Shown: piece after piece, positions 2,130 through 42,400 of the stretch
Position numbering within the stretch: the stretch's first letter is position 1
How the letters are laid out: every line of letters starts with the position of its first letter
Assembly (NCBI GenBank): GCA_028554795.2
Contig: CM068826.1
Coordinates: forward strand, 100,621,346-100,685,345
Direction of reading: 5' to 3'
Length of the DNA: 64,000 nucleotides
Source of the DNA: Sinohyriopsis cumingii
Lineage: Eukaryota; Mollusca; Bivalvia; Unionida; Unionidae
Notes under the pieces: model-generated
Told to the model about the DNA's origin: nothing
Seen by the model: only the letters and a program-made list of their open reading frames with translations
Databases searched by the model: none
Position numbers and translations under genes: made by a program

Positions 2130-2216
2130 ATAGGTAGCACCCTCACTGGTAGGAAACACGCATAAAACGAAAACAACAGTAAATTAAACAAACTATTAAG
2201 ACTTTTTGCACTAGAG

Positions 2217-6028: not shown

Positions 6029-6117
6029 ACCGAATGAAGGGTTGGGTATAAAGAGAGACCATGTAAAGAAATTAAAACCAATAAACCTAAAAGATCGAAC
6101 CAAAAAAGAAAAAAACC

Positions 6118-15290: not shown

Positions 15291-15403
15291 CCCAATCAGA
15301 TAGGTTCAGCATTTAAAATATTTTAGACGTTGTGCGAGACAGTTCAAGCTACTGTTACATAAAACTTATTATTTTATCCATTTACGTACAAAAAAGAACA
15401 GTA

Positions 15404-17092: not shown

Positions 17093-17309
17093 TCAATGAC
17101 TTGATTTTTTATAGGTAGGCTATTACAGTTGACCTTTTACTATTGGAATGCATTTCGTTATGTAAACATTAATTTCTTGCAGATTACAAAAAAACTAGAG
17201 CCAATTTTGCAATTTGACTGTCATATTCGTGTTCAGCACATAAAAATTGATAAGAATTGACTAATTTTATTTCAGTAACATGACTTTTGTAAAAATTTGT
17301 TGTCCAGTG

Positions 17310-19033
17310 TTATCCCAGTGTGTAGGATTTTGGTCCATTTTGGAAATTGGGTCCGAAACCAAATTTTTTAAAAACATTCTTTATACAGTTTTGTTCAAAT
17401 CAGTCGAAAGCTTTCTCCTGGTCGAAGAGTACCATAGCACTCATCATACCAGTTTCATTTATGTAGTTAATTATAGTTTTAATATTTAAAATATTGTTTT
17501 GTATATCCCTCCACCACAAGTTTGATTTACATTAATTATCTTGTTTATCCTACCCTTTACTGTATTTGTTAAAATCCTACTTAAAATCTTATAGTCCGTG
17601 TTTAAAAGTGATATAGGCCTCCAGTTTTTAATCTCGTCTCTATTCCCTTTCCCTTTGTATATAATTGTGATAACTCCCTCCCTCATAGATTTAGTCATTT
17701 TATTTTTACTTAAAACTATATTATTATACAAAGCGTTTAAGATCGGCGTCAGTTCACCGTGGAACTTTTGGTAGAATTCCACGATGAGTCCATCTTTCCC
17801 TGGTGACTTTTGTGAGTGTTGATATACTTTTTGTGATTTCTTCATCTGAGATGACATCATCACATTGGTCTCTATGTACTGCTGATGTCATCTCACAGTC
17901 GACATTTTTTAAGTAGCTGTCGATTGTGCTGAAGTATATGTTCTGTGTGGTGTGTGGTGTATAGTTCTTTATAATATTTGGAAATATTATTTAGGATATC
18001 TTCTTTTACAGTATGGGTTACATTGTTTATTTTGATATTGTTTAAAATTGTATCACCCCCTTTTCTAAATTCTTCTCGCTTATATACGTTTTTTGCCTCG
18101 TTGTAGATCTCTGTAAATTTTCCCGCCCTTATTATTCTCCCCTGATTTTCGTCTTCTTCAACGATTTTAATTTTGTCTGTCAATCGTTTTTTTTTTTCTT
18201 TCTCCATCGTCGTTTGTTGTTTTGCTTAGTTCTAATTTGAGTTCGTGTTTGTCTTTTTCTTCTGGGGTTTTTCCGCCCTCTATTTGAGTACTGAATATTT
18301 ATTTCTTTTATTTTGTTTTTTAAAACATCCCAATCAATTATTATATTAATATTTTCTTCATTTTTGACGGTTTCAATTTCTTTTTTTAATTATTATTTCG
18401 ACATATTCTTTGTCATTTAAAATCTTATTATTTAGTTTCCATAGTCCTGACCCACATTTTTCTATTTTTTTCATTTTTAGGTCAATAGTGAGCATGAAAT
18501 GGTCTGATAGCTTTTGGTTGGTTATTGCAGTATTAATATATATTAATGGATCATAAAAATTTCCGTAAAATTTATCAATCCTGCTAGACTGGTTTAATTT
18601 ATAGTTACCCAGTTGAAATCTCCCCCTATGATTAGATTTTCCATCGAATATTGTTGTAGGTAGGTGTATAAGTTTTCTTTAAAATTAGTTTCTTATTTCT
18701 ATTAGCTGGCATGTACACATTTATAATATGCCAATTAAACATTTTAACACGTAGCAACCGTCCCTTAAAAAATTTCCCCCTCCTCAAACCTTTCCCAGCT
18801 TTTTAAAAATATTATTGTTGCAACCAACTCTAATATCATTATTTGCAAAATTGTTGCATATCTTTATTGCGTTAAGTTTGTCTTCTACTAAAATTTCGAA
18901 CTCTGGCTTAATTCTATAGTGTGTTTCTTGTATCATTATTACACCAAAGTTTGTTTCTTTGGCTACTTTGTCTGCTTTCGCTTTGTCTATCCCATTGCTG
19001 TTGATAGTAGCGATCCGGAAATTTGTTTCTTCC
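17310..19033 (-). pseudogene. L1/Tx1-like ORF2, N-terminal part (endonuclease and start of RT)
   Basis: Minus-strand remnant beginning near ATG 19033. The endonuclease N-terminus has ATINSNGID and IMIQETHY; later GGDFNW and LSDHFMLTIDLK appear in shifted frames around 18480-18620. RT begins with SPGKDGLIVEFYQKF, NWRPISLLNTDYKILSRIL at 17540-17840, then MSAMVLFDQEKAFD near 17395-17460, up to the transposon boundary. Several stops and shifts show decay. The motifs match L1/Tx1-type apurinic endonuclease plus RT. No ORF1 was seen upstream. Confidence 0.8.
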
Positions 19034-19867: not shown

Positions 19868-20055
19868 CATTTTGTCCCACCCAGTCACATTATCCTCACA
19901 CCAATATCTTAATGATGGGCGCCAAAAGAGGCAGCTGCTAGTACCATTTTTATGTCTTTAGTGTGATTCGGCAGGGGTTTGAATCCGCGACCTCTCGCAT
20001 CCAAGGCGGACGCTCTGTACAGACACTGCACCACCTGAGCGATCGCTTAGCAAAG
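19868..20055 (-). repeat. tRNA-derived SINE, minus strand
   Basis: Read on the minus strand, CTCAGGTGGTGCAGTGTCTG near 20025-20040 resembles a Pol III A box and GGTCGCGGATTCAAACCCC near 19975-19995 a B box. A conserved tail follows that includes GGTACTAGCAGCTGCCTC, TAAGATATTGGTG and the end AATGTGACTGGGTGGGAC. The tail recurs at 32505-32700 (same orientation) and 47555-47770 (opposite). Family naming is not attempted. Confidence 0.75.
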
Positions 20056-20488
20056 AATGTACGATACTGTTTCCTGTTGTTCATAACAACTCGACCTGGA
20101 GACCCACCTGACGGAAAATGAAAGCGCATTATAACGTTATAATATACGAATCCGGAATTTTTTTTGATTATTATAATTTTCAAGAAAGTTAGTGCCTTTT
20201 AGCATTTGACAAAGTGTGCTTGCAGTTGCATACTAAGGGGAGGGGGAGTTTACAACATACTTCGATGCTGACTACTGATTTGAAGCATAAAATTAAAACT
20301 AAACAACAGCATAACATGTTTATATATCTTATTAAATACGTCTTCATTTGTCTTTCCGTGCGCCAAAATGCCTTCCTACACGAACATGTTCCATATAGGT
20401 AAATAAGTTGTACCAATCGTAAACAACCACCGATTTCGACATATATGATATCAATTTATAGGTTTCTCATCAGTTTAAATCGATCTGT

Positions 20489-20522
<34 letters not shown>

Positions 20523-23190
20523 ATTAAAAAAAATGTGTGAAAATGAATAATAAAAAAGTTGCTATTTGCGACTCATTGTCGCTTGCGACTTTACCGATCT
20601 TCGTATCCTTGATGCTTCCATCCTTCCCGTTTAGGGATGGTAGCACCTACTTGGATGCTAATACTATAGATTTGAAGCATATAATTAAAGCTGTACAACA
20701 GTAAATAATATGTTTATGTATCTTCTTATTAAGTACGTCTTCATAATGTATGTTCGTGCGCCCAATGCCTTCCTCTACGAACGGTTTCGATATACACGAA
20801 TAAGTCATACCAATAGTAAATAAACATCGATTTTGACAAATTTCATATTAATATATAGGTTTCTCATCTGTCTAACTCGATCTGTGCCAACAGACATGTG
20901 TGAACATGCAGAATACAAAAAAGTGTACTTTTTACTGAATATTGGGTTCGACTTTACTGATCTTCATATCCTTGCTACGTTCATATACCGTTCCCGTTCT
21001 GCGATGGTAGCACATACGTCCATGCTAATACTATAGATCTGAAGCATAGAATTAAAGCTGTACATAATTATAAAATATGTGTATGTATCTTATTAAGCAC
21101 GTCTTTATCTGTCTTTCCGTGTGCCTACATCTGACCTATACAAAAGTTTTCCATATGGGCGAATAAGTCATACCAATCGCAAAGAACGATTTTGACACGT
21201 TTGATATCAGTTGATAAATTTTTATCAGTCTAAATAGATCTGTGCCAATATAAATGGGTGAAAATGCAAAATAGAAAAGTTGGTATTTTTCACTCAGTAT
21301 CGCTTGCAACGTTACCGATCATCGTATCCTTGCTACGTCCATCTGCCATTCCCGTTTTGCGATCGTATCACATTTTTTCGATGCTAATTCTATAAACCTG
21401 ACACATATAATAAAAGCTGTTCAACGGTAAATAATGTGTATGCGTCTTATGAAGTACGTCTTCATTTGTACGTCCTTGCGTTTAGTGCCTTCCTAACCGA
21501 ATATTTTCCATATAGGCGAATAAGTCATACCAATCGCAAACAACCAACGATGTTGACAAGTTTGATATCAATTGATACGTTTCTCATGATTCTAAGTCGA
21601 TCTCTGCCAATAGACATGTGTGAAAATGCAAAATAAAAAAGATTGTTCTTTTTACTGAATATCGGGTGCGACATTACCGATCTTCATATCCTTGGTACGT
21701 GAAACTACCATTGCCGTTTTGCGATTGTACCACATATTTCGATACTAATACTACAAATTTGAAGAATATAATTAAAGCTGTACAACAGTAAATAATATGT
21801 GTGTGTATCTTATTAAGTACGTCTTCATTTGTCTGTCTTTTCTCCTAATGTCTTCTATACGATCGTTTAACAAACAGGTGAATAAGTCATTACAATAGTA
21901 ATAAACACCGATTTAGCAAAATTTGATATCAATTGTTAGGTTTCTCGTCAGTCTAAATCGATATGTGCCAACAGAAATGTGTGAAAATGAAAATAAAATA
22001 GTTTGTATTTTTGACTCGATATCGGTTGCGACTTATACGTGCCTCTACCATTGCAGTTTGCCACGGTACCACATATTTCAATTTTAATATTATAGATCTC
22101 AAACATATAAGGAAAGCTATACAACAATATATAATATGTGTATGCATCTTATAAAGTACATCTTTGTGTGTCTGTATGTCCGCTCAATGTCTTCCTCAAT
22201 GAGCGTTTTCCATATAGGCAAATAAGTTATAACATTAGTAATTTTTTAAAAACGCGATTTAGACGAATTTGATATCAATTGATAGGTTTCTCATCAGTCT
22301 AAATTGATCTGTGAAATATATAAATGTGTGAAAATGCAAGTAAAAAAGTTGATATTTTTTACTTGGTGTCGCTTGCGATATTACGGATCATCAACGGATC
22401 ATCATATTCTATATTCTACCTACGTGCCTCTACCCTTGCCGCTTTGAGATGGTACCATATAATTCGATGATAATCATTTGAATGTTAGTGCTCCTAGATC
22501 TTTACAACACGAACGTTTATCTTAGAGTCGAATAAGTCATACCAATCGTAAGCACACACAGATTTTGACAAATCTGGTATTATTTGGTAGGTTTCTCATC
22601 AGTCTAAATTGATCTATGCCTACAGAAATGTGTGAAAATGCAACCTAGAAAAGTTTATATATTTTACCCAGTATCCTTTGCGACTTTACCATTACCAATC
22701 TTCATATCCTTGTTACGTGCCTCTAGTATTGCTGTTTTGCGATGGTATCACATACCTCGATGCTGATACTAGTGATATGAAGCATATACTTAAGCAATAA
22801 AACAGTAAAAATTATGTGTATGTATCTTATTAAGTACATCTTCATTTCTCTGTCCGTGCGCCTATATCCTTGCAACATGATCGTTTTCTATAAGGCTAAA
22901 TATGTCATGTTAATCGTAAAAAAAGCTACAAAGATTTGGACCTATTTGATATCCAGTCATTGGTTTCTCATTAGTCTAAAACGACCCGTGTCAATATAAA
23001 TGTGTGAAAATGCTACCTTGAAAGTTGCCTTTTTTGTCTCGGTATTGCTTGCGACTTACCGATCTTCATATCTTTGCTACCCGCTTCTACCCTTGCCGTT
23101 TTTTGATGGTTTGTATATAACCAAATAAGTCATGCCAATTGTAAAGAACCACCGATGTTAACACATTTGATATTAGTTTATAGGTTTCTC
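20056..23190 (+). repeat. Tandem array of ~360-bp satellite monomers, copy 1
   Basis: After a ~130-base spacer shared with copy 2 (it contains the palindrome TTATAACGTTATAA), diverged monomers recur. The anchor GTTTCTCATCAGTCTAAATC lies near 20461, 20858, 21217, 21577, 21939, 22284, 22590 and 22962, with a truncated copy at 23182. Spacings run 397, 359, 360, 361, 345, 306, 372 and 220 bases. Monomers also share CGACTTTACCGATCTTCATA, GATGCTAATACTATAGAT and CTTATTAAGTACGTCTTCAT. No coding frame persists. Confidence 0.9.
20491..20520. repeat. Poly-A run inside satellite monomer
   Basis: Thirty consecutive A bases replace the CCAA(T/C)AGA word of the monomer, which lengthens this unit to about 397 bases. 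Confidence 0.9.
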
Positions 23191-27700: not shown

Positions 27701-28325
27701 TATCCAACCCAAAACCCCTTAGGAAGCTTTATACATTTACTGGTTTGGTTTTAGCATGAAAAACATAAGTGACATCTACAAAAATAATAAACTGGTAAAA
27801 AGACTAGAAACAACAAGGACCTTTAGAAGTATAAAGGAACTTTTATGTAAATATAGGGAAAATGAGGAACTTTGGGGAATTGAAACTAAGGAAACATATA
27901 ATTGGATAAGGGAAAATTTAACCTCTAAAATTAAAAATAAAGTAGAGGAGGAAATATCTCGGTTAATTGGGACAGACCTTAGAGGTACTGGACCAACATC
28001 GGCTCTCCAAAAATACAAAGCTTGATATTCAAATATCTACACGACATATGCATACATGTAAATTATCTCATGTGCAAATGTGCGAACTTCACAAAATATC
28101 ATGCGATGGCACAGTGCGAGTTTAGGAAACAAGACAGGATACAATTAATTATGGAGATATCCAAGAAATAAAAATACAGAAGAAACCAAGTTTTATATCA
28201 AGACGGCAACTTTAACAAAACTTTAATAGGAAAAATAACAGATAACATAACTAAAACCATGATGGCGTGTGACCAAGTCATAAACATAAAAAAAATGAAT
28301 AGGCAAATTTTTTTGTAATCCTTTC
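27701..28325 (+). pseudogene. L1/Tx1-like ORF2 C-terminal fragment, plus orientation
   Basis: An open stretch at 27756-28025 encodes KNISDIYKNNKLVKRLETTR and ends with ALQKYKA. After one stop the homologous reading continues with IFKYLHDI, the zinc-like CKCANFTKYHAMAQC and CDQVINIKK, matching in order the minus-strand element's C-terminus at 13281-13649 (IFKYLHNTW, CKTANFTKLHTIVQC, CGQVIKIFK). The copy is 5'-truncated within ORF2. Confidence 0.75.
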
Positions 28326-29535
28326 AAATTAATTAGAAAAAAGAACTTCTAGGAAGATTTGTGAATGGGAGGGACGGGGCTGCAAAGGGTGAAAAGAAGG
28401 GGAGGGAGATGGGGCAATGGATAATCTCCCCTTAAAGGGGACCATCACAAAGTGAACCCTTGCCCTCATACCCCCACCCCGGATTGGAATCTGCTGTAGC
28501 CGCCACCCTTTTAGATTCTTATAAATTTTCCTAAACAGCTTCAGTTTCTTTTTATTATCCATTACAATTAAAATTAAATAATTAAATAGACTTTAATTAT
28601 ATTACGTAAACTATCACAAATCCTAATTATCGGGACAGAGAAACTATATGGGAAAAGAACGAGATAATGACGTCATGGGGCTATGAAAGAGTCGGGAAAA
28701 ACACCTCATATAGGAAACTTTACATACATACACGAAAACAAAGGATCTAATAAGTCTCTCTTCTAATTCTATTTGCTCAAAATGTGCAGCTGTCGCACTG
28801 CACGGTAAATCCCCACCGTGTGTGTGTATGTGTGTGTGTGTGTGTGTGTGGGAAGAACAACCATTTTTAGAGATTTTGGCAGAAATCCAATAAATAATTT
28901 GAGACGGCCTAACTCTAGGTGGGAGAAATACAAGCAAATAAAAATGTGTATGGACTCCAACTCGAGTACAGCGGATTTCAATTTACAAATCCAATATGTG
29001 AATAATGACACAATATATTTGCACACAGAACACATTAAGTTTTTTTTTTCTTAATTAAATTATAATACACCGTTACTTAGCCAAAATTCAAAAATATATT
29101 AAATAAATAAAAATAAACCTTTTCTTGATCCGATTATAAGGTCCTAAGATTACTGGGGAGATTTGGGAAAAAATAAAGGCTATCCCAACATGGAAGCAAA
29201 ATATAGCATACACAAACTATAGCATATATATATATAGCACACACGGGATATAGGCGACCTCTAGCCAAGGTCAACCAAGAGTATAGGGAAGGGATTTCAA
29301 GTCAGGTGATGGAAAGATGGAAACCTATTCGGAAAAACAACCCTATAGATAAAACTAGGTTTTAAAAGAAATACCCCGTTAAAAAGGAGAATTAAATTTT
29401 TTTGACCTAAATTCTTTTGCATAATATAAAACATACAACACATGGGGGGGGGGGATAAATACACATAAAACACTATAATTTTTTGGAAAAGTGGGGTGGG
29501 GGGTCTGTCTGGTGCCGGCCCCCCCCCCCCCAGTA
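28326..29535 (+). mobile_element. 3' UTR of the plus-strand L1/Tx1-like copy
   Basis: Non-coding and colinear (in reverse) with 12003-13280: GACGTCATGGGGCTA, GTCGCACTGCACGG, GGCCTAAC and TATAGCATA words, ending CTGTCTGGTGCCGG followed by poly-C at about 29515-29532. A GT microsatellite at 28818-28850 interrupts it. Confidence 0.6.
28818..28850. repeat. (GT)n microsatellite
   Basis: A GT run with one TA interruption, inside the L1/Tx1-like 3' UTR. Confidence 0.9.
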
Positions 29536-32504
29536 CTTCGTCTTGTGGGGATAAATGTACGTCATTTCCTGCTGGCGTCCTCTATAGGTGGAAAATCGTA
29601 TCTAAGTAACAGTGATGTATACTTTTATTTCGAGAAATTAAATTATTTTTTCTGTACACTTTATAGGTTTTTTTTGGTTCTTTTTGTTCAAGTATAACTA
29701 CTTTTAATCATGTTATGCAAATCTGATGTATAAAGAAAAATGTTGGTGCATGGCCGGTAACTTTTATACGTCATGGCAACGGAAAATAAATTCCGCGCAT
29801 GCGCATTTTGTGTGGGAGCACCAAAAAAAACCCCACACAAAAACAAGCAATTTACTAAAACAAGCCATTACGTGAGAACTTGGCCTGAAAAGAGCAAATA
29901 TAGGTACTATAAAATATTGCTAGTCTCGGATTTGACAAGCCTTAGTTTTTTATGCTGATGAAACATTTTTCAGTAGAATTTTTTTTCCTACAGTTTAAAT
30001 GCCTAATTTTACTGTTTATAATCATACATGTTCAAATGTACTGGTCACATATAACAATATCGTCGAAGTATTAACTGATACCATGCTGGATTTATATAGA
30101 ATGTCTAAATAATCATAAAACTAAAGGTGTAATTGATTATAACCAATATATATTTTTTGCAATAACAAGATAATGAGATCCGAACATTGACCAAACAGTA
30201 CTTAGAGAAATTCAATATCGATTAGTTCATCCTCAACCTCCAACTGATATACTTTATTGCAAGGGGTAAATGGTACCGTATTGAAAGACGTGTTAGGATA
30301 AAAGATACCGTTGTTAAAGAATATCCTGACCGACTGAGATCTTAACATCGTACATCATAGCTGCAAACAGTGCAAGCCAATATACACATTTGCATTATGC
30401 TCACGCAAGAAATATTGTATCAACCAAATGGGTTTCTTGACCGAGCGATGTCAAGCCCTTGCGCGAATCCCGCTACGAGTCATAGGTTTCCCCGATTCAA
30501 AGGAATCCTGTACAACTACTTCTGCAAACTGGAAAGTCCAACGCGTCCAATCTATCAGTAATGTTACTCTAATTAATACATGACCACAAATCCCAACTTC
30601 CCAATTGTATGTCAATGTCACAACTGCAAAGCTTCTCTTCGTTAACTTTCCGTAACTTACCGCCAGTATTTCACGCCGTGAAACTATACAACTCAACAAC
30701 CTAATACAGGGAACCGTTTTTACTACGCCACCTTAGGCCTTTTAAATCATGATTTTTAGCTTCATTTCGCCTGTAACTTTGTAACATATTTACCACCACA
30801 GCAACAATAAATGGCGCCCGCCGACGGCGGAACAGTCCTTTTCTGTTGATTCCATTGTATAATTTACCAATCTCCAGTCATAAATACTGCACCTGGAGTC
30901 ACACGATCAATTCACGCAATTAGATTTGAATAGGGACTACTGAGTGACAGGGATACTCATGCGGCTCTTACCTGAATTCACCAAAAGTAAACCATGTCAT
31001 CTTGAAACTCACTTACACTTCACTCCGTAACGTTTGCCCCTAGTAATTGGCTAATTATTTTGGTCTAAAGACTATAATCCCAGCACCGACTTCCCATATT
31101 CAAGCAAGTATATAAGGAATCCTTAAAATGGAGAGCGGTAAACAAATGCGCATACTCCAAAATATATTACAATATTATACATACCTTGGAATTTTATTAA
31201 CTATTTTTGTTTACATATTTTCATTGTACTCGTGGATGGGTAATGTGATTTTGCGTTCTGCCTTGCTTATAAAATGTATTGTCTTTGGTCAACAAAAGTT
31301 GATTTAGAGAGGATAAGAAAAGAAGTTTTGTTAAACGATGATGGAATTAAATAAACACTGGGGACAATATCGTACGTTGCACATAAATCGCAGAGATTAA
31401 TTGAGATTTTGCTTAACGGTCAATCAGTCCGCACTCGAAGTAGGGAAATAAGCGAATAGTGCAAAAGCCGACCATTGTCTGATAATCGACGTACATCTGC
31501 CACAGCCATATATTGTAAAAATCCCATTACTACAGGTAAAAAAGAATTAACTACAACTGCTTCTTTGGGGCGTCATGTGTGACCAGTGTATATTAGTACT
31601 GTTTTAGAAAAATATTGCGACAAACCAAAGTAAAGAAAACAGTCACTTTTATCAATCAGTCCATATCGTTTTACAAATTATACTGAATAACTGACTTCAG
31701 TAGAACTCAGAAGAATGTATTCCTGTAAGCACATCACGATTGCGGTGTTTGTACATTTATATAAAGTGGGATCATTTTACAAGCAAAGTATACATTTAAA
31801 AATTAACACTACAAATGAGACAACGCTTAAGTACATACGGATTATAATCGTGAGATGGCAAAGAATGGTTCATATGTTGAGAGGTAACCAATACACCAAC
31901 AAAATAAGAGTTTGTAAGAACATCTTATTTCCTTCTTAGATATACTTAGCCATAATGCAAATTGTTTCCTAATATGAAACATGTAAACATATTCCGACCA
32001 TGCTGGAAACAAAAATAGTAAATTTAATTTAGTTCAGCGTAAACTGTAAGTTAGTTCTTTCCTTTTGGCATGGTGTCTGAATAAAAAAGTATATTTCTCA
32101 AATTTGCTAACCACTACACTGTCATTATGTAATTAGATACCTAATTGATGTACCATGGTTGTATACATATATCTATACATATATATAGTTTTGTGGACAT
32201 GTACGGTTGAATAATACCATCCCGTGTTTGTGTAGGGAAATGCGTACATCACAATCGCACTCGTAAATTTGAATCAATACCATCTCATGAATGGTTAGGG
32301 GCCGTCCATTTAGTATGTACGCATAGAGGGGTGGGGTGGGGGTAACCCAAATGCATAGGCTTGAGCATGGAGGTATACTGATAATATATGTACGCATTTA
32401 AGGGGGGGGGGCGCTGAAACCTCGAAAATAAGTTGTATAATACGTAACCTGTTCGACTTGGTTCAGTAGGCTTTTGCATTTTAGCGGACATAAGACAAAC
32501 TTGT
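29536..32504. other. Intergenic, no gene seen
   Basis: No supported gene or clear repeat. A small CpG-rich word cluster lies near 30812-30832 (GGCGCCCGCCGACGGCGG), and a poly-G tract near 32401-32411. Confidence 0.5.
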
Positions 32505-32705
32505 CCCACCCAGTCACACTATCCTGACACCAGGCCGACTAATCCGAACACTAACCTCTTAATGATCGGCACCAAAAGAGGCAGCTGCTAGTACCATTTT
32601 TATGTCTTTAGTATGATTCGGCCGGGGTTTGAATACGCGACCCCTCGCATCCGAGGCGGACGCTCTATAGACACATTGCACCATCGGAGAAGTCGCTTAG
32701 TAAAG
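32505..32705 (-). repeat. tRNA-derived SINE, minus strand (copy in second composite unit)
   Basis: Same family and orientation as 19868-20055: tail words GTCCCACCCAGTCACACTAT and GAGGCAGCTGCTAGTACCAT, and a degraded B box in GGGGTTTGAATACGCGACC. It is longer than copy 1 in the tail, retaining a segment around CCGACTAATCCGAACACTAA that is also present, in reverse, in the SINE at 47555-47770. Confidence 0.75.
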
Positions 32706-34510
32706 AATGTACGATACTGGTTCCTGTTTTTCATGACAACTCGACCTGGAGACCTACCTGATGGAAAATGAAGGCGCATTATAAGGTTATAATATACGAG
32801 TCCATAAATACATAAATATTTTTAAATTATAATTTTCGAGCAATTAGTGTCTCTTAGCATTTAACAAAGTCTGCTTGCAGTAGCGTACTAAGGGGAGGGG
32901 GGTTACAACATACTTCGATGCTAATACTACTGATTTCAAGCATAAAATTAAAGCTAAACAACAGCATATAACATGTTTACATATATTATTAAGTACGTCT
33001 TCATTTGTCTTTCCGTGCGCCAAATACCTTCCAACACAAAGATTTTCCATATAGGTAAATTAGTTGTACCAATCTTAAACAACCATATATTTCGACATAT
33101 ATAATATCAATGTATAGGTTCCTCATCAGTTTAAATCGATCTGTGCCAAAAAAAGTCGAGAAAATTAATAATAAAAAAGTTGGTATTTATGACTCATTAT
33201 TGCTTGCGACTTTACCGATCTTCATATCCTTGATATGTGCATCTACCCTTCCCGTTTTGCAATAGTAGCACATACTTGGATGCTAATACTATAGATTTGA
33301 AGCATATAATTTAAGATGTACAACATTAAATAATATGTGTATGTATCTTATTAAGTACGGTTTCATATGTCTGTTTGTGCACCCGATGCCTTCCTATCCG
33401 AACGGTTTCCATATAGGTGAATAATTTATACCAATAGTAAACAAACACAGCTTTTGACAAATTTCATATTAATATATAGGTTCTCATCTGCCTAAATCGA
33501 TTTGTGCCAATAGACGTGTGTGAAAATACAAAATAAAAAAGTTCCACTTTTTACGGAATATCGGGTGCGACTTTACCGATCTTCATATGCTTGCTACTTT
33601 AATACACCCTTCCCGTTTTGTGATTGTAGCACATACTTCGATGCTAATATTAGAGATCTGAAGTATAGAATTAAAACTATACAATATTATAAAATGTGTG
33701 TATATATCTTAATAAGCACGTCTTTATTTGTCTGTCCGTGCGCCTAGATCCGACCTATACGAAAGTTTTTCATATGGGCGAATAAGTCATAACAATCGCA
33801 AAAACAACGGTTTTGACACATTTGATATCAGATGACAAATTTGATTTTAATTGATATGTTTCTAATCATACTAAATCGATCTGTGCCAATAGACATGTGT
33901 GAAAATGCAAAATAGAAGGTTTTGTTCTTTTTACTGAATATCGGGTGCGACTTTACCGATCTGCATATCCTTGCTACGTGAATCTACCATTGCCGTTTTG
34001 CGATCGTACTACATATTTCGATGCTATTGCTATATATCTAAAGCATATAATTAAAGCCGTACAACTGTAAATAGTATGTGTATGTATCTTATTAAGTATA
34101 TCTTCCTTTGTCTGTCATTTCGCCTAATGTCTTCATATACGATCGTTTTCCATACAGGTGAATAACTCATAACAATAGTAAATAAACCCCGATTTTGACA
34201 AATTTGATATAAATTGATAGGTTTCGCATCAGTCTAAATCGATCTGTGATAGTAGAAATGTAAGAAAATGCAATATGAAAGTTTTGGTATATTTGACTCT
34301 GTATCGCTTGTGAATTTAACAATCTTCATAACCTTGATACGTGCATCTTCCATTGCCGTTTGTCTCGGTATCACACACTTCAATGTTTATAGTATAAATC
34401 TGAAGCATACAAGGAGAGCTATACAACAGTATATAATATGTGTATGAATCTTATTAAATACATCTTGATGTGTCTGTATGTCCGCCCAATGTCTTCCACA
34501 GCGAGCGTTT
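32706..34510 (+). repeat. Tandem array of ~360-bp satellite monomers, copy 2
   Basis: The spacer after the SINE matches copy 1 (AAAGAATGTACGATACTG, ACTCGACCTGGAGACC), followed by monomers of the same family in the same orientation. Anchors lie near 33117, 33479, 33858 and 34220 (spacings 362, 379, 362). The array stops abruptly at about 34510 after TTTTCCATATT. Confidence 0.9.
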
Positions 34511-35850
34511 TCCATATTGTGTATTGTTCCACTTCCTATTTTTACACTACCTAATTTTGACCTAGTTTAATAAACACCCATTTCTACAGAGGACACATCT
34601 GTCGCAGCCTCGACATTTTTTTACACTTATCAGCATTGAGTCACTCGGACAAAAAGATTTGTCAAAAGTCATATCATTATTATTAATGAAGTGAAACAAG
34701 GACACATACGATGAAAAAAATAATACATTTCTCCAATTCACTTTTTTCCAACCAGGAAGTCCTCTTAAAATCTTTACCAACTATTCTGACAAGGCAAATA
34801 CAATTCGTTCCATACCAATCATCCAGTCTGCTACTCAACATGTGTTAGCTATGTGACTCACAGCTGATAACTGCATCTCCATCACCATTTTAGAATTGTG
34901 TTTTGTGTTTTACGTGAATATGTCATTACTGATTTTCTGAGGTGGTTCTTGGGTATTTTACTTTGGAGTAATGAACATGAAACACACGTTTATGGTATAT
35001 TTCATAAATAAATCAGCATCCTCTACATTACTGCTAATTTAAATAAAATTACGTGTATTACTATTAGGATGTTTCTCTCAAAAATAGGCAATTTTACTTT
35101 AATAGTAAATTTTCAAACGTCCATTAAACTAATCTTGATATTTAACTTATTTTGACAAATTAATTCTTTCTAAATGTCTTCTGTCTCCTATTATTTGCAC
35201 TATTAGAGAAATAAGTTATGAAGTATGCAAAACAGTTTTGTACCTTAAACAGTACATGTACATTAAAGAATTGGGGTTCTGCATATTCACAATGCCATTT
35301 AATTATTGCAAGGATGTTGTACACTAAATCCAGTATTCTTTTATTATAAGTAAACAATTGTATTATTATACCATCATGATTTTCCCCCAATTTTATTCTT
35401 TCAGCTTTTCCAACAAAATATCTGTTCCAAAACAAATTTTTTGATAAATATAGGAACAAATTCTGAGTAAACACCATTTTTCTTTTGTTGTCGTTGTTAA
35501 TGGTAGACTGAGAGAAGAAAATGCAGCAGCATATAATATGAACTTAAGTGAAGTTATGAACTTACTAAGCCTGGATTTAAATAAATGGTATCACTTGTAT
35601 TTCTAATGACAGCCACAATCCTCTTAGTTTGGGCTCAAGACCAGCAATAGTGAATAGAGGTATTTCGAAAGACATATAACAGCTCACTCATTATAATGTT
35701 ACTAATTAGCATTATTGAAAACTTCTTAGATATCAAAATAAATAGTATATATGTATGGTGCTTGTTGGCGACATTGGCAGATTATTCACTCCACATCCTG
35801 GTTCCCGGGCAGTTTTGATCTCTCACAATAATAATCACGGGCATAGTGGC
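34511..35850. other. Intergenic, no gene supported
   Basis: Contains open stretches at 34562-34780 and 35160-35477 on the minus strand with no recognisable domain, skewed AT-rich composition and no promoter or splice evidence. I do not call them genes. Confidence 0.5.
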
Positions 35851-35954
35851 TCGTTACAAAGAAAATCAACAGATTTGGGTTCTAACCTGTAACACTATTA
35901 ACATATTATATTGTTACAGGTTAGAACCCCATCCCTTGATTTTCTTTGTAACGA
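35851..35954. repeat. Long hairpin / foldback (~104 bp)
   Basis: TCGTTACAAAGAAAATCAA (35851-35869) pairs with TTGATTTTCTTTGTAACGA at the far end (to 35954), and GGTTCTAACCTGTAAC (about 35878-35893) pairs with GTTACAGGTTAGAACC (35913-35928). Two nearly perfect stems are thus separated only by a small internal bulge and a ~19-base loop. It could be a hairpin MITE or a structured RNA; no target duplication is evident. Confidence 0.85.
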
Positions 35955-36221
35955 CCCCTGTCATCATGGGCAGTAAATTTGAAACATACTACTTCCGGGT
36001 CAATCTATTTTTAAGGTGCAATATATACTAGTACATAATGGGAGGTAACTCAAGTTGTGCTATTCAATTCAATTCATTAATGAAAAAATGGAAATAAATA
36101 GGTAAAAAGGCAATTATTTATTTTGCAGATGAATATTTATCGAATATTTAACATTCAGCAGCATAAATATGCATTTATTTTATTGATATTTGTGGCAAGA
36201 GTGCAGAAAAGGACGACGTGC

Positions 36222-36299
36222 TTCGTGGGCAGATGGAAATCTGCCCACGAACTTTTATCTGCCCACGAAACCGTCTGAGGACGACAAAACTGCCCACGA
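36222..36299. repeat. 13-bp hairpin and four TGCCCACGA repeats left of the viral genes
   Basis: TTCGTGGGCAGAT (36222-36234) and ATCTGCCCACGAA (36239-36251) form perfect 13-bp arms around GGAA. Two further direct copies of the right arm core lie at 36257-36270 and 36290-36299. Spaced repeats plus a hairpin upstream of a replication gene resemble initiator-binding sites, but that function is inference. Confidence 0.75.
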
Positions 36300-36315
36300 C
36301 CCACCTTAAATAATA

Positions 36316-36318
<3 letters not shown>

Positions 36319-36400
<82 letters not shown>
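36319..36400. repeat. (TA)n microsatellite
   Basis: About 80 bases of uninterrupted TA between the hairpin repeats and the polymerase gene; it may shift in length between alleles. Confidence 0.95.
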
Positions 36401-36407
<7 letters not shown>

Positions 36408-36435
36408 TTATTTAAATATTTGTCTTAAATATAAT

Positions 36436-36661
36436 ATGAAGGGTTTATTTGGCGCTGGGAGATTCGATCTTGACAGGCTAAACAGACTCACGACGGCGGT
36501 ATCTAGCTGATCTGTTTAATATTATCAACGAGGGCAAAAAAGAATTTCGCGACGACGGCGCATCTCATGTATGGTCGTCATTTAAAATTATCCGCGACGT
36601 TGACTCAGTCAATATCATTGACGAACTCTTCTTCGGTGATGAGGTCATCATCGATGCTACA
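36436..36661 (+). pseudogene. 5' part of the polymerase gene, frameshifted
   Basis: An ATG at 36436 opens 24 codons closed by a TGA at 36508-36510. The frame one base later is open from a TAA near 36479 and runs without a stop straight into ATG 36662 of the long frame, with composition like the downstream protein. The native start was therefore probably upstream of 36662, with a small indel near 36480-36510. This is inference; no restored sequence is given. Confidence 0.6.
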
Positions 36662-39600
36662 ATGACTGATGCCCGAGCAAAAACAATTATTGATTATCTC
36701 GCTGATGGACATCAAAGTGATGGACGTGTTAAGAAATATTTTTTCAGAATAAAATTTATTGTCCAAACAGATTCCGATGAATGGATTATCCGTGACAAAC
36801 TCGACCCTGTTCTTGCTAACGGAAAGACCATTCTGTTAAGTAGTGGCTGTAAACCAGGAATGCTGACCGGGATTGATAAACCATATTACCCTCGAGCGTA
36901 TCCTGTAACCGCAGTCATTTATGGAATATATCCGGTAAAAAAACCAAAAATTGATAAACTCGCCCCGATGCGATTTTCAACGCTGAATTGTGTAGCTGAA
37001 CGAGTAATGGAACATTTTAAAAACGCAAAACGAGGAAACGGTTTAACCGATCTGCGACGTGAAAAAATAACAGCCTGGGCTGAATCGGTTAAAGATACTG
37101 GGGCATCAATAAATGATGTTGCTGCGCTATCATGTAAATTAAAATGTTCAATAACAGTAAAAACACTAACCGGGGAAATATTATATAATTCCAAGCATTA
37201 TAAAAAGTCAGGATCACCGATTGAAATTATCGATCATAACTCTCATGCCTGGACTGATGCGGTTACAATATTTCCACGAGACCGTGTTGTCAAATTTTAT
37301 CGCGGGAATATATTTGATGCTATTTACAGGTTGAGTAAAACCGACCCTGTGTCAGTGTGGTTATTTAGGAGTTCCGAAGATTCCGAGTATGATCAATTTG
37401 TAAAACCCAACGGGGAATTATACCGGACAGAATCGTTGCAACAACAAATGAAAAAACTCGCAGAACAATATGTGAGAAACGCAAGCATTTCCAACGACAA
37501 CATTGAGCAGTTATTGGTTAATTGTTTTACAGTTCCAAGTGTTGCCGCTCACGCCGCAAGAGAAAGAAATTCGTGGAGACCAACCCGAAGTCAGTTTCTT
37601 TCAGATATACAATTAAGTTGTGTCGAGTATGGGCATGGCGGGTTGTGGAATACCCGATATGACTACCGGGATATGATTTCCGTGGATATGATTGCCTGCT
37701 ACCCAGGAAGCTTTCTCGGGAACGGAGAGTGCCGCGAATACTTTGCGCGGTTTGGACATCCCACGAACTCGATGACACGAGTCGCCGTAAACGGCAGTTT
37801 ACCCGACTTTGATTTGACAGGATTTGCTCGTGTGACTTCGTTTGAATTCGCCGCGGAGCTTCATCAGATTTGTTATGTTTGGTTTTGCAGACACTTCGTC
37901 GAAAAGCGCTGGGTACCAATAGTGTTATTGCGATATATGCTTGACAGCGGCATACTGTTGTCGCTGACTGTCAGTGAAGCAATCATATGTTATCAACCGC
38001 AGACCTCAGTTTGGTTACCAACACCGGAGCGTATTACCCTCGATGAAGTTATCGAAGAATGGACACGAGCACGTCCAGAAACTCCTCTTGATGCTATCCG
38101 CGAAGGAGCTCCCGAAATTCTCAAGATTAAACTCAGCAATGGTGAAAGCACAGCGAAAGATCTTGGACGAAGAATAATCGGTAAATTTACTCAGGGTGCA
38201 GCATTTGATCATAAAATGCATCACTCGCGGTTGATTATCGATGAAGCTGAATTGGATTTTATAATCGCCGACGCGGTTGCCAGAGACATATTTTGTAATC
38301 GGGAGGATGTGTTCTTGTCCGACGGAAAACAGTTGGGCACAATTGTAAGTTATATCGACGGAGAATCGCCTCAGTGCACCCATTTAAGATCTTCAATGCT
38401 GGGTTATGTTTCTATAAATTTGTTATCGATGGTAAATCGATTTCCTGACACCGCAGTTAGAGTTGCCACGGATTCATTTTATATCGATAAAAAATATTCA
38501 GAATCACTGACCGATATAATGAAATTCTGCGGCGGAGATGAATGGGGTTCGTGGAGAATAAAAGCCGAGATGTTACACGAGTATTGTGAATCCGCCGATG
38601 TTGCAATCGAGGATGATTATTATAAATCCGAGATGCCAGAAATATCTTCCGCACCGTCTGTATATGATCCAATCACCAGACACAAAACTGTTTATTTTAA
38701 CGGGCCGGGCGGGTCTGGTAAAACAACTCGAGCGATTGAATTATTTGGAAAATCAGATATGATTGTGCTAACACCCACATACAGGCTTGCCAGGGAGATG
38801 AAACAGCGAGGAGTCAATTCTTGTACTTATCACAGCTTTTTCAAATATAGCGGCGGTGTGTGGACGTCAGATCGAATGGGAACAAAATATATCAATGATA
38901 TAATAATTTGGGATGAGATATGTACGGTACCGTTAGATACATTAAAAACATTTCTTGATTGGCTGTTAACGAAAAATACTGCAGTGATTATGTGCGGCGA
39001 TCACGGTCAACCACCTCCGTTTGTCGGCGCATCTCCGCATGATTGGTTAAAAGATTTTGTTGATTATTACGAAGAAGTGTCTAATGATTACCGAGCACTT
39101 GATGCAACGTTGAAAGAATTTAAAACACTAATCAGATTACAACCGAATAAAATTCAATGTGAAATCATGCGCGAGATGATTCCTAAAACTTCAATGAGTG
39201 ACTTTTTACGCGTGTGGAAACCAGAGGATTTGATAGTGGCGAGTAGAAAGATAGTCAGAGACACACTTCAACAACAGCTATTTCAATTACAACAAGAAAA
39301 GTTTCCAATGCTGCCAACGCCGTTATGTTATAGACCAGCTGATACGCGGTTACAAAATATAGATGTTGATATTCCAGGAAAGACAGAGAAACAGAATTTA
39401 GTATTGAATGATATTGTGTTAGTTGACATCGATGCTGTCAAAGATGCACTAAAAATGAATAAATCCCCGTGGACGCTAGGATACGCAATGACCATTCATT
39501 GTTCTCAAGGACTGACTATCTCTGATACAACTGTCTGGATCGTTGATGATCGAATCGAATGGTCGAACTTAGTCTACTTGGCTGTGTCCAGAGTCAGAAG

Positions 39601-39949
39601 AATATCTCAACTGCGAAGAATTGTCTTGGAAGATTCAAACGCTGATAAAATTAATAATGAAAACAACAGCGATGATGATGTAATAAGAAAAAAATTAGCC
39701 GGTTACAAACAGAGTGACAAAAAAAATAATCGCGACTTTGATCTTGATGTTGAATTTATTATTGAGTTAAAACAACAGCAGAATAATCACTGTGCGAGCT
39801 GTAATTGTATAATGCTATGGCAGTATTCGAATAAAAATTCAAGACAATTTACCGTAGACAGAAAAGATAACAATCGCGGTCATACACGTGATAATGTCAT
39901 GTTGACCTGTCTTGAGTGTAATCGACGTCGGGGTGCCAGCGCTAGTTAA
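36662..39949 (+). CDS. Fused family-B-like DNA polymerase / SF1 helicase / HNH nuclease
   Basis: Replication protein of the virus-like element, 1095 codons in one open frame. Residues 1-330 have no recognised domain and no clear 3'-5' exonuclease motif. A polymerase palm follows: motif A SVDMIACYPGSF (about 339-350), motif B-like RRIIGKFTQGA (about 500), motif C VATDSFYID (about 600), where family B normally has DTDS. A superfamily-1 helicase follows, with Walker A GPGGSGKT (about 680), Walker B IIWDEIC (about 750), GDHGQPPPF (about 778), TIHCSQGLTI (about 943) and YLAVSRVRR (about 972). The C-terminus has CASC, TVDRKDNNRGHTRDN and CLECNRRRG, an HNH zinc nuclease. It converges with the integrase gene 10 bases away. 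Domain calls are motif-based. Confidence 0.8.
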   Translation: MTDARAKTIIDYLADGHQSDGRVKKYFFRIKFIVQTDSDEWIIRDKLDPVLANGKTILLSSGCKPGMLTGIDKPYYPRAYPVTAVIYGIYPVKKPKIDKLAPMRFSTLNCVAERVMEHFKNAKRGNGLTDLRREKITAWAESVKDTGASINDVAALSCKLKCSITVKTLTGEILYNSKHYKKSGSPIEIIDHNSHAWTDAVTIFPRDRVVKFYRGNIFDAIYRLSKTDPVSVWLFRSSEDSEYDQFVKPNGELYRTESLQQQMKKLAEQYVRNASISNDNIEQLLVNCFTVPSVAAHAARERNSWRPTRSQFLSDIQLSCVEYGHGGLWNTRYDYRDMISVDMIACYPGSFLGNGECREYFARFGHPTNSMTRVAVNGSLPDFDLTGFARVTSFEFAAELHQICYVWFCRHFVEKRWVPIVLLRYMLDSGILLSLTVSEAIICYQPQTSVWLPTPERITLDEVIEEWTRARPETPLDAIREGAPEILKIKLSNGESTAKDLGRRIIGKFTQGAAFDHKMHHSRLIIDEAELDFIIADAVARDIFCNREDVFLSDGKQLGTIVSYIDGESPQCTHLRSSMLGYVSINLLSMVNRFPDTAVRVATDSFYIDKKYSESLTDIMKFCGGDEWGSWRIKAEMLHEYCESADVAIEDDYYKSEMPEISSAPSVYDPITRHKTVYFNGPGGSGKTTRAIELFGKSDMIVLTPTYRLAREMKQRGVNSCTYHSFFKYSGGVWTSDRMGTKYINDIIIWDEICTVPLDTLKTFLDWLLTKNTAVIMCGDHGQPPPFVGASPHDWLKDFVDYYEEVSNDYRALDATLKEFKTLIRLQPNKIQCEIMREMIPKTSMSDFLRVWKPEDLIVASRKIVRDTLQQQLFQLQQEKFPMLPTPLCYRPADTRLQNIDVDIPGKTEKQNLVLNDIVLVDIDAVKDALKMNKSPWTLGYAMTIHCSQGLTISDTTVWIVDDRIEWSNLVYLAVSRVRRISQLRRIVLEDSNADKINNENNSDDDVIRKKLAGYKQSDKKNNRDFDLDVEFIIELKQQQNNHCASCNCIMLWQYSNKNSRQFTVDRKDNNRGHTRDNVMLTCLECNRRRGASAS

Positions 39950-39954
39950 GTGAT

Positions 39955-39976
39955 CGAAATCACTTCAGTGATTTCG
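39955..39976. terminator. Perfect 10+10 palindrome between convergent genes
   Basis: CGAAATCACT, a TC loop and AGTGATTTCG lie just after the polymerase stop (39949) and overlap the probable integrase stop (39960-39962, minus). A two-way 3'-end or termination signal is the natural reading, but no T-rich tail or AATAAA is directly attached, so the role is inference. Confidence 0.6.
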
Positions 39977-40908
39977 GCGGCAATTGTGTGTCCTCGGGAA
40001 TTACCTGAAGTTGCTCACGGGTGAATCCACGCTGAGGAGCAGTTGAATCCAACCTGTAGATTGCTGGTCTGCCAGTGGATCTTGTCACGGTGGATATCTT
40101 ATGTGTGGTAACACTCCAAATGGGATCAGTCGCTCTTCGTTTACCACCTTCAAGTTCACCTGGTTCATATAAATATCTAACTGTAACATTACCCAGTATT
40201 TGCTGTTTTTCTTTCTTTCGTTGTAGTGGTATATTTTTTTTTCGTGATCGCGATGGCAGGTTTCATGTTGGTTGTTCGTGTGATCTCGCTATTTAGCGCA
40301 GTTATCACACTTGGTAATCTTGCAACCCATTCACGCGATCTCGTATCCTGAATAAATTCCTTCGCGTATTGATATCCAAATAACCGCTCAGCAAGTGTTC
40401 GATTGAATCGCTCAACAATTGCCTGATCACGGTGAATTTCAGTGTGTCCTCGTCTGATGGTGACGTTATGTTGTTTCATCAACGATGATACTGCACCTTG
40501 AAATTCTTTGCCAGTATCAACTTGTAATAGATTTGGCCATCGTAGACCACGTTGATAAATTCTTTCAAACGCAGAAGCAACCTCAGATGCTGTTTTAGTT
40601 GTTAACGGTTCAGCATCTTTGTATCTACTTGCAACATCAAGTATGGTTAACGCGTACTTGTATGTGCGTCTTCGGATAGTATCATGTGGCAGAAATAATA
40701 TATCAGCTTGATGAACCTCATTTGGTACACTAACATCGAAATGCGCGAAGTGAATTTGTTTAGGACGCGGCAGATAAATTTGCCATATTGCCTGTCGGGA
40801 TAACCAATTTTTGGCAGTAACTGCTGTAACTTTTGCTGCTTCAGCGAGTTTACTAATTGCTGCGTTACCTCTCCAGTATCCGCTTGGGGAATAATAAATC
40901 GACTCCAT
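39960..40908 (-). CDS. Retrovirus-like DDE integrase, C-terminus frameshifted
   Basis: Integrase of the virus-like element, inserting its DNA into host chromosomes by strand transfer. From the start at 40908, 239 codons stay open to 40189. The rve core shows the catalytic triad HQADILF (D69), LLQVDTGKEF (D131) and AIVERFNR (E166), with the last two about 35 apart as in retroviruses and Polintons. An N-terminal zinc domain is not obvious. The frame breaks in a run of nine A (about 40229-40237); the adjacent frame then encodes a tail with VRYLYEPGELEGG and TREQLQ, like the C-terminal domain of Polinton-type integrases, up to a stop at 39960-39962. One base lost or gained explains this. The PLA2-like gene starts 6 bases upstream, same strand. 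Confidence 0.85.
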
Positions 40909-40913
40909 TATAA

Positions 40914-41315
40914 TTAATTACCAGCGCCTAATACAAGCTTAGATTTCATTGCAGTTTTTATTAACCAGGATGCTAACTTTTCTTTGAAAGATTTATCAGG
41001 GATGGGATTTAACGCGTGAATTAATTTCACATCCGCGAGATGGCGCTGTTGCAAATCCTTGCTTCGGTAAGCTACATCATGAGCATGACACGCCTTATCA
41101 ATAGCGTTTATCGGATACTCACCTGGTTTTGGCTGATCCTGAGCATCAAGTCTGATATCAAGTCGGGTTCCAGGACTGCAATAATTATATCCTGGAAGAT
41201 GTTTTTCTCCTGGGTATTTAGCCCACGGAGCCCCTGGTAACTTTGTTAACTTGGCTGCGATATCACCTCCGTTTTTTTTTAATAAATCTAAATTTTTTTG
41301 TGCCACATCGTTCAC
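40914..41315 (-). CDS. Phospholipase A2-like protein (parvovirus VP1-type domain)
   Basis: A 133-codon frame with the calcium-loop-like YNYCSPGT and, about 30 residues on, the catalytic-site-like DKACHAHDVAYRS. This pair is typical of the PLA2 domain in parvovirus capsid proteins and some adintovirus proteins, where it helps the particle leave endosomes. The C-terminal third is Lys-rich and shows no capsid fold by eye. The open frame starts only with GTG at 41315. In the same frame an ATG lies at 41391-41393 with a TAA at 41340-41342 between, so an earlier start interrupted by one nonsense change is likely. The gene precedes the integrase by 5 bases (operon-like) and diverges from the ATPase. 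Confidence 0.8.
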   Translation of the reverse strand: MNDVAQKNLDLLKKNGGDIAAKLTKLPGAPWAKYPGEKHLPGYNYCSPGTRLDIRLDAQDQPKPGEYPINAIDKACHAHDVAYRSKDLQQRHLADVKLIHALNPIPDKSFKEKLASWLIKTAMKSKLVLGAGN

Positions 41316-41393
41316 ACTTGGCCTGTAAGCGCTTGTCGATTATTTTTTGTTGTAATTGTTGTTGTATCCGTAGTTGGGGTATGTGCTCGACAT

Positions 41394-41422
41394 TTCACAC
41401 AATATAAATTCATATTTATTTT
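41394..41422. promoter_or_regulatory. Short divergent promoter region with TATA-like word
   Basis: Between the ATG at 41393 (minus) and the ATPase ATG at 41423 (plus) lie only about 29 bases, very AT-rich, with AATATAAATT. It probably carries overlapping start signals for both divergent genes; this is inferred from position. Confidence 0.4.
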
Positions 41423-42115
41423 ATGATATATCTAATGGAGATCACTGACTTTTCTGCGTCAAAGCGACGAGAGCCAATCAAACATAACTCAGTGCTACCA
41501 AATTCAATTCGAATGATTATTATAGGTCCATCTGGGTCGGGTAAGACACAGTTGTTACTTAATTTAATAATGAAGTGGATGAAGTGGGATAAATTATATT
41601 TAATAGCCCCGTCTGTGGACGATCAGCGGTGTTATCAGGTATTAAAAGATTTTAACGAAAGTGCAGCATCGATAATGGAAAATCAAAGTGATTTTCACGA
41701 AGATATTATTGATTTTATAACTGATATCAATGAAGCACCGAGTATCGATGACATCGATGGGAGTATTAATAATTTAGTTGTGTACGATGATATCATGTTG
41801 GACAAACAATCAAACCCTGCCAGGATATTTTCACGCGGCAGGCATAAAAACACCGATGTGATTTATGTAACTCAACGTTATACACAAATACCAAAAGTGA
41901 TCAGAGATAACTGTAACGTTCTTGCGGTATTTAACGGCGTTGACGCACACACGTTACAAAATATTCATCGAACTTGGTGCAGCGGTGACATGGACATAAA
42001 TAAATTCAGAAATTTCTTTAGTCATGCTCAGGCAAAACCACACCGATTTGTAACGATAAATTTACATGATCCTCGGACACGGTATCGAGTTGGGTTAGAT
42101 ACAATTTTTAACTAG
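41423..42115 (+). CDS. A32/FtsK-HerA-like DNA packaging ATPase
   Basis: A 230-codon intact frame. Walker A is GPSGSGKTQLLL (about residues 32-43) and Walker B NLVVYDDIM (about 114-122), followed by the sensor-like VIYVTQRYTQIP and a conserved RFVTINLHDPRTRYRVG tail. This order and size match packaging ATPases of Polintons, adintoviruses and nucleocytoplasmic viruses, which pump DNA into the capsid. The start could be 41423 or an in-frame ATG at 41435. It is divergent from the PLA2-like gene. It is the only gene of the element in which I see no lesion. Confidence 0.85.
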   Translation: MIYLMEITDFSASKRREPIKHNSVLPNSIRMIIIGPSGSGKTQLLLNLIMKWMKWDKLYLIAPSVDDQRCYQVLKDFNESAASIMENQSDFHEDIIDFITDINEAPSIDDIDGSINNLVVYDDIMLDKQSNPARIFSRGRHKNTDVIYVTQRYTQIPKVIRDNCNVLAVFNGVDAHTLQNIHRTWCSGDMDINKFRNFFSHAQAKPHRFVTINLHDPRTRYRVGLDTIFN

Positions 42116-42140
42116 AAATCCTAGAATATTTACATCGCTA

Positions 42141-42374
42141 GCGGCAGAGAGACTGAGCCACCAAGTGTTTCGTCGACGTCTCCCTACGTCAAGAAGTATT
42201 TTTATAGTTAGTTATTTTTCATGAAATAACTCTTCTGGTCAGCAGAGAAGGCTTATTTATCATGGTTTTCTGAATAGAGGGTTTATTTTGTGAAATAAAG
42301 ACCTTCTATCAAGAGTGTTTTCGATAGAGGGTTCTGTTGGAACGAATAGTTGGTGGGCTCAGTCTCTCTGCTGC
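42141..42374. repeat. Foldback with nested hairpins at the right edge of the viral element
   Basis: GCGGCAGAGAGACTGAGCC begins the left arm (42141-42164). It pairs with 42350-42374 with one mismatch and one extra base. Inside are smaller palindromes: GTTATTT/AAATAAC at 42211-42230, an imperfect 15-17-bp stem at 42274-42309, TCTATC/GATAGA at 42305-42328, and CGTCGACG at 42171-42178. The branched shape recalls terminal hairpins of some linear viral genomes, but a hairpin MITE is also possible; no target duplication was found. Confidence 0.75.
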
Positions 42375-42400
42375 TCTTTAAAAAAAGTCTAAGAAAATGA

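What the first reader, a model, noticed from the sequence alone, without database searches (positions are those of the whole stretch)
36200..42400. Compact virus-like element with polymerase, integrase, PLA2 and packaging ATPase but no visible capsid
Seen: family-B-like polymerase motifs, D/D/E integrase core, PLA2 calcium-loop and HD motifs, and an A32-like ATPase within 6 kb. Known: integrase + B-type polymerase + A32-like ATPase defines Polintons and adintoviruses, usually 10-20 kb with capsid and protease genes. Inference: this is either a deletion derivative or a small lineage that lacks or borrows structural genes. The PLA2-type domain raises a possible link to parvovirus/bidnavirus-like particles.
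Basis: partly seen in the sequence, partly recalled or inferred. Interest (0 to 1): 0.9.

Follow-up and report, generated by a model that had tools for sequence, protein, structure and literature searches.

The report
Truncated endogenous Tlr1-type polinton-like virus
The 6-kb stretch is the right-hand end of one broken copy of a 14-17 kb virus-like element with ordinary capsid genes, present in very many copies in this probably animal genome, so the missing capsid is a deletion and not a new compact virus.

Summary
The genes are real, but the interpretation changes. Window 36393-42375 holds four ORFs: a polymerase, a retroviral-type integrase, a parvovirus-type PLA2 and an A32-like ATPase. 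The 1095-aa 'polymerase' is a fusion: OTU-like N-terminus, phi29-like family-B palm, Pif1/RecD2 helicase, HNH. That is the layout published as the 'Tlr1-like helicase' (pPolB-S1H) of polinton-like viruses (PLVs), not an ordinary polinton/adintovirus PolB. Nine other copies measured in the same genome are 13.9-17.4 kb, with terminal inverted repeats (TIRs) and 5-bp target-site duplications (exact in 8 of 9). The left part, in the copies scanned, encodes a double-jelly-roll capsid protein, a penton-like protein and a weakly matched adenain-like protease. The window copy lost its left end (about 8-11 kb) at an internal (TA)n tract, where a different young giant repeat now abuts. Its integrase and PLA2 are also shortened. 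The family is the interesting part: 150 of 150 scored ATPase places match, most open; 33 of 88 capsid-gene matches have one identical score, so a very recent burst. TIRs are themselves palindromes able to fold into hairpins. Host unnamed; named relatives point to molluscs, perhaps a freshwater mussel.

The parts
36393..42375 (+). Remnant (right-hand third or so) of a 14-17 kb Tlr1-type polinton-like element; left part missing
   Evidence: blastn to other copies starts at the (TA)n tract and stops at 42373-42379; last base of the end motif 42375
36317..36404 (.). (TA)n tract, internal to other copies; here the truncation point, abutting an unrelated repeat on its left
36662..39949 (+). 1095-aa replication protein: OTU-like N-terminus, protein-primed-type PolB palm, SF1 (Pif1/RecD2) helicase, C-terminal HNH
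40189..40908 (-). rve integrase, 239 aa; C-terminal part lost compared with the 316-aa ORF of two sister copies
40914..41315 (-). PLA2-like protein, 133 aa; an N-terminal zinc-ribbon (DUF5679) found in a 164-aa sister ORF is absent
41423..42115 (+). A32-like packaging ATPase, 230 aa, open
42138..42375 (.). Right TIR, an imperfect palindrome able to fold into a terminal hairpin; homology to left TIRs of other copies begins at 42110-42145
42376..42380 (.). CTTTA, the expected right target-site duplication; its left partner is lost with the left end
   Evidence: 5-bp duplications in 9 other copies

Best explanation
The window holds a dead, left-truncated copy of an endogenous polinton-like virus of the Tlr1 type. 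Fuller copies are linear elements of about 14-17 kb bounded by palindromic TIRs. [quoted passage not shown] Inferred: the fused protein copies the genome, the integrase inserts it, the capsid module makes particles, and the PLA2 helps them through a membrane at entry. The window copy lacks the left TIR and the capsid, penton and protease genes; it ends at an internal (TA)n tract, where a separate giant repeat now abuts. It should not be able to move or make particles by itself.
For: Right end shared with 10 of 10 other copies read. Nine copies measured: 13,896-17,383 bp, TSD 5 of 5 bases in 8 and 4 of 5 in one, TIRs 225-230 of the first 230 bases identical. Missing left part, scanned in copies J and D, encodes a DJR capsid protein (PF21738, 4.6e-19 and 3.2e-18), a C5-type protease match (0.0038 and 0.014, both under Pfam's cut-off) and, in J, a protein whose model matches penton and minor capsid models (MELD virus penton 4.6e-5, adenovirus penton 6.1e-5). 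Nine loci picked out of both own-genome lists have capsid gene and ATPase 12.7-13.8 kb apart. ATPase, PLA2 and integrase lie in the same order and strands in 6 of 8 loci by exact tags, the window's own included. The left neighbour is another repeat: its 116-base end is identical at 40 of 40 scored places, and in the 2 read (L038, L039) nothing past the microsatellite matches the viral pieces held. The fusion matches the published Tlr1-like helicase: palm with first Asp of motif C lost, SF1 helicase, C-terminal HNH, OTU-like Cys/His (PMC11071308 section 10).
Against: The missing left half was sought and not found in the window or in the 18 kb to its left (one 47-residue, 47% identical match to the first ORF in L043 may be another, older fragment), so whether a deletion or the giant repeat removed it is open. 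The protease match is weak. No polymerase Pfam model matches. No tree with Tlr1 or other named PLV sequences was made, so 'Tlr1-type' rests on architecture, motifs and fold. Two of nine left pieces fetched (copies A, F) showed no left TIR, so broken copies are not rare.
Confidence: 0.9

Rival explanations
1. A genuine compact, capsid-less mobile lineage that borrows structural proteins from larger relatives.
For: The 6-kb remnant has polymerase, integrase, ATPase and one TIR with hairpin; the polymerase and ATPase ORFs are open.
Against: No left TIR and no paired target-site duplication; its left neighbour is an unrelated high-copy repeat; all nine measured copies are 13.9-17.4 kb; integrase and PLA2 are shortened. 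The genome was not searched for other copies of this junction as such.
Confidence: 0.04
2. An ordinary polinton/adintovirus whose PolB has been misread as a fusion.
For: Gene set (rve integrase, DJR capsid, penton-like protein, adenain-like protease, A32-like ATPase) is shared with polintons and adintoviruses; PLA2 is known in some polintons.
Against: One uninterrupted ORF with helicase and HNH; 34 of 40 homologues carry a precomputed helicase-type domain and 26 of 32 aligned rows the HNH part; 5-bp not 6-bp duplications (against PMC10045372, passage); no chromodomain by Pfam in a 316-aa sister integrase, whereas adintoviruses are described as having one (PMC11071296, passage).
Confidence: 0.07
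3. A bidnavirus/parvovirus-related element.
For: PLA2 domain of the parvovirus type and palindromic ends.
Against: The capsid gene of other copies is double jelly roll; the PLA2 of a sister copy is a zinc-ribbon-PLA2 protein and not part of a capsid protein; Pfam showed no NS1-type helicase among the proteins scanned.
Confidence: 0.01

Closest known systems
Tlr1 element of Tetrahymena and PLVs with a Tlr1-like helicase (pPolB-S1H)
   Same: rve integrase (Tlr1), DJR capsid genes, packaging ATPase, palm-helicase fusion with changed motif C and a C-terminal homing endonuclease (PMC11071308 section 10 read; PMC4642659 passages)
   Different: HNH instead of the GIY-YIG of Tlr1 (PMC12721341 passage); PLA2 with a zinc ribbon; probably an animal host; palindromic TIRs; not joined by a tree here
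Polintons / Mavericks / adintoviruses
   Same: Integrase, capsid module, ATPase, size, TIRs (start AG: recalled for polintons), animal hosts; PLA2 in some
   Different: Polymerase fused to SF1 helicase and HNH; 5-bp duplications against 6 bp; no chromodomain detected in the integrase
Oxyrrhis marina PLV helicase-pPolB fusion
   Same: SF1 helicase and pPolB in one protein (PMC12721341 passages)
   Different: There the helicase is N-terminal and the exonuclease kept; here the helicase is C-terminal
HelPol meldviruses/maldviruses
   Same: Mosaic of an unusual polymerase with adintovirus-like genes (PMC11071296 section 13 read)
   Different: HelPol is described as remotely PolBc/Pol-delta-like; no sequence comparison was made here

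Membership tests
Tlr1-type polinton-like virus (pPolB-S1H) | PolB palm domain upstream of an SF1 helicase in one protein | tested here: met
Tlr1-type polinton-like virus (pPolB-S1H) | Motifs A and B kept, first Asp of motif C changed | tested here: met
   D342 and K508 in 32 of 32 rows; motif C reads ATD in 29 rows incl. the window, AID in 1, NTD in 1, gap in 1
Tlr1-type polinton-like virus (pPolB-S1H) | OTU domain with catalytic Cys and His next to the palm | tested here: inconclusive
   C110 in 30 of 32 and H195 in 29 of 32 rows would fit; the assignment to an OTU is mine and the fold was not tested on its own
Tlr1-type polinton-like virus (pPolB-S1H) | C-terminal GIY-YIG or HNH endonuclease | tested here: met
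   phrog_1035 (endonuclease VII) 1.3e-9 at 1006-1093; Pfam HNH only 0.23; aligned in 26 of 32 rows
Tlr1-type polinton-like virus (pPolB-S1H) | DJR capsid protein, penton-like protein, packaging ATPase, cysteine protease in fuller copies | tested here: met
   the protease match is weak and under Pfam's cut-off
Tlr1-type polinton-like virus (pPolB-S1H) | Common ancestry with Tlr1 in a tree | not tested
   No named Tlr1 or TvV-S1 replication sequence was fetched; best BFVD hit H6WBE3 (4.2e-27) carries no name in the tool
Polinton/adintovirus | Stand-alone PolB with exonuclease domain | tested here: inconclusive
   Helicase fusion present; absence of the exonuclease was not tested separately
Polinton/adintovirus | 6-bp target-site duplication | tested here: not met
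   5 bp in 9 copies (exact in 8)
Polinton/adintovirus | Integrase with C-terminal chromodomain | tested here: inconclusive
   No chromodomain by Pfam in one 316-aa sister integrase; no structure predicted
Bidnavirus/parvovirus | Single-jelly-roll capsid VP carrying the PLA2 | tested here: not met
   PLA2 sits with DUF5679 in a 164-aa ORF; capsid protein is DJR

The most novel reading that the evidence does not exclude
A Tlr1-type virus, a group described mainly from protists, is amplifying now in an animal germ line, and its self-palindromic TIRs act as hairpin telomeres that prime or resolve replication instead of, or beside, a terminal protein.
Probability: 0.2. Interest if true: 0.75.

Novelty: new member of a known kind. 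Interest (0 to 1): 0.45.

Why it matters
It removes a supposed capsid-less virus. It also places the Tlr1-type polymerase-helicase fusion, described from a ciliate, algae and giant-virus companions in the papers seen here, in a probably animal genome at very high copy number, with signs of very recent amplification. That gives a place to ask whether such elements still make particles in animals, and how a polymerase-helicase fusion handles palindromic ends.

Tried and rejected
Rejected: compact lineage (left neighbour is another repeat; no left TIR); unrelated insertions brought together by chance (ATPase, PLA2 and integrase lie in the same order in 6 of 8 loci by exact tags); bidnavirus/parvovirus (capsid is DJR). 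Led nowhere: IMG/VR scans with the polymerase alone, its alignment (one 27% identical helicase-only hit in a 167-kb contig) and the capsid alignment; Rfam and tRNA scans; extent of the giant repeat by genome search (not completed). Papers not held: PMC5499653 and PMC8502044, both central and not read. Passages of PMC10120064 and PMC7805220 were also seen. Named hits: Elysia crispata 4 of 40 and Gigaspora margarita 1 of 40 (a partial match, 39% of the query) for the polymerase; Sinanodonta woodiana 1 and Potamilus streckersoni 1 of 25 for the capsid protein; Sinanodonta 4 and Potamilus 1 of 16 for the penton-like protein; the other hits are mostly nameless metagenome or assembly proteins. That these two are unionid mussels and that unionids have 19 chromosome pairs is recalled; the host guess rests on that. 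On what is in print: the searches (titles and starts of abstracts) showed me no Tlr1-type element in a mollusc; the bivalve transposon papers listed were not opened. Endogenous PLVs in corals and PLV-like elements with insect poxviruses are mentioned in PMC12220804 (passage).

Full report
What is there. The window lies at C3:100621346-100685345 of an unnamed 2.9-Gb genome. In 36.2-42.4 kb there are four ORFs: 36662-39949 (+, 1095 aa), 40189-40908 (-, 239 aa), 40914-41315 (-, 133 aa) and 41423-42115 (+, 230 aa). Pfam finds an integrase core (7.9e-8), a PLA2-like domain (1.6e-11) and an A32-like ATPase (2.8e-15); for the long ORF its significant matches are helicase-type AAA domains (best 3e-9) at residues 672-786. 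PHROGs adds a Dda-like helicase (8e-16) and an endonuclease VII match at 1006-1093 (1.3e-9).

The rest of the element. The ATPase matched 150 of 150 places scored in the genome, the window's own included (40,948 first-look candidates, so a lower bound), at 89-100% identity; by my count 130 of the 150 have no internal stop. I fetched two flanking pieces for each of ten copies, then farther left pieces of nine (copy E was left out). All ten share the right end. Seven of the nine show a left TIR. Copies A and F do not: A has another repeat in its polymerase gene, and the piece of F gave no match to the region before the polymerase. Those seven plus two copies of another subfamily were measured: 13,896, 17,278, 16,627, 15,195, 16,555, 17,383, 16,260, 16,181 and 16,104 bp, with 5-bp target-site duplications identical in 8 of 9 and 4 of 5 bases in the other. 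The left part was scanned by Pfam in copies J and D (and one ORF of I): a DJR capsid protein in both (4.6e-19, 3.2e-18), a weak C5-protease match in both (0.0038, 0.014), several ORFs without a good match. A 479-aa protein of J has no Pfam match, but its model (pLDDT 74) matches viral penton and minor capsid models.

The window copy is broken. Homology to other copies starts at the (TA)n tract 36317-36404. Left of it lies another repeat: window 28220-36200 is 99.4% identical over 7,989 bp at C5:40428300-40436288, and its last 116 bases are identical at 40 of 40 scored places. In the two read it ends at a microsatellite, and what follows matches none of the viral pieces held. The missing viral half was not found in the window nor in 18 kb to the left, apart from one weak 47-residue match. 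The integrase ORF is 239 aa against 316 in two sister copies, and the PLA2 ORF 133 aa against 164 in one, which has a DUF5679 zinc ribbon in front. In eight loci, one of them the window's own, the longest integrase ORFs ran from 100 to 316 aa, so decay of this gene is common.

Ends. The right 240 bases fold as DNA at -40.7 kcal/mol, z = -8.0, with 0 of 200 shuffles as good. All 18 terminal segments examined (11 right, 7 left) fold at -74 to -107 kcal/mol with RNA parameters, without shuffles. The left ends of two copies of the other subfamily, with a different outer sequence, also pair outer to inner arm and fold below 60 of 60 mononucleotide shuffles. TIRs are 225-230 of 230 bases identical within a copy, which fits recent insertion. 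That the palindromes serve replication is inference.

A burst. A capsid-gene search scored 88 places, all matching (36,440 first-look candidates). Of these, 33 have the same score (776.1 bits), 79% identity to the query and no stop; they lie on C1, C2, C3 and the first 9 Mb of C4, roughly a fifth of the genome: the same or nearly the same protein many times. Scoring seems to have gone in contig order and stopped, so the genome-wide number is not known. Two such copies are 99.86% identical over 2,070 bp, though only 95.3% over 2,999 bp at their right sides, and their TIRs agree in 230 of 230 bases.

Mechanism and filing. Best reading: an endogenous, recently active polinton-like virus of the Tlr1 type. 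The PLA2 role at entry is by analogy, as proposed in PMC4642659 (passage). PLVs in animals are not new as such: corals and an insect-poxvirus association are mentioned in PMC12220804 (passage). Polinton duplications are given as 6 bp (PMC10045372, passage); PLVs as 5-6 bp (PMC12220804, passage).

Verdict. Observation mostly right; 'no capsid' is a deletion. The family behind it is a good, moderately novel member of a known kind.

Noticed in passing
window 28220-36316 (at least): Part of a separate giant repeat, 99.4% identical over 8 kb elsewhere, whose end TTAAATAATAG abuts microsatellites in the three places read; its last 116 bases are identical at 40 of 40 scored places. Left end not found.
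   Followed up: partly
window 19892-23102 and 32542-34517: Two arrays of degenerate tandem repeats of about 365-380 bp that resemble each other, the second inside the giant repeat.
   Followed up: no
window 16743-17314: 98.8% identical to DNA inserted in the polymerase gene of copy A (L009), so another young repeat; the overlapping 586-aa ORF 15332-17092 has no Pfam match.
   Followed up: no
window 700-6350: Non-LTR retrotransposon remains: endonuclease, reverse transcriptase and RNase H matches.
   Followed up: no
G000:C8:41719699-41732917 (L006, L017): Two ATPase genes lie on opposite strands 12 kb apart, and L017 holds matches to the left part in both orientations: an inverted pair or dimer.
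   Followed up: no
L044-L047: A related subfamily with a different TIR outer sequence (AGCAGCAGAGGGG), about 16.1 kb, TIRs identical in the first 230 bases.
   Followed up: partly
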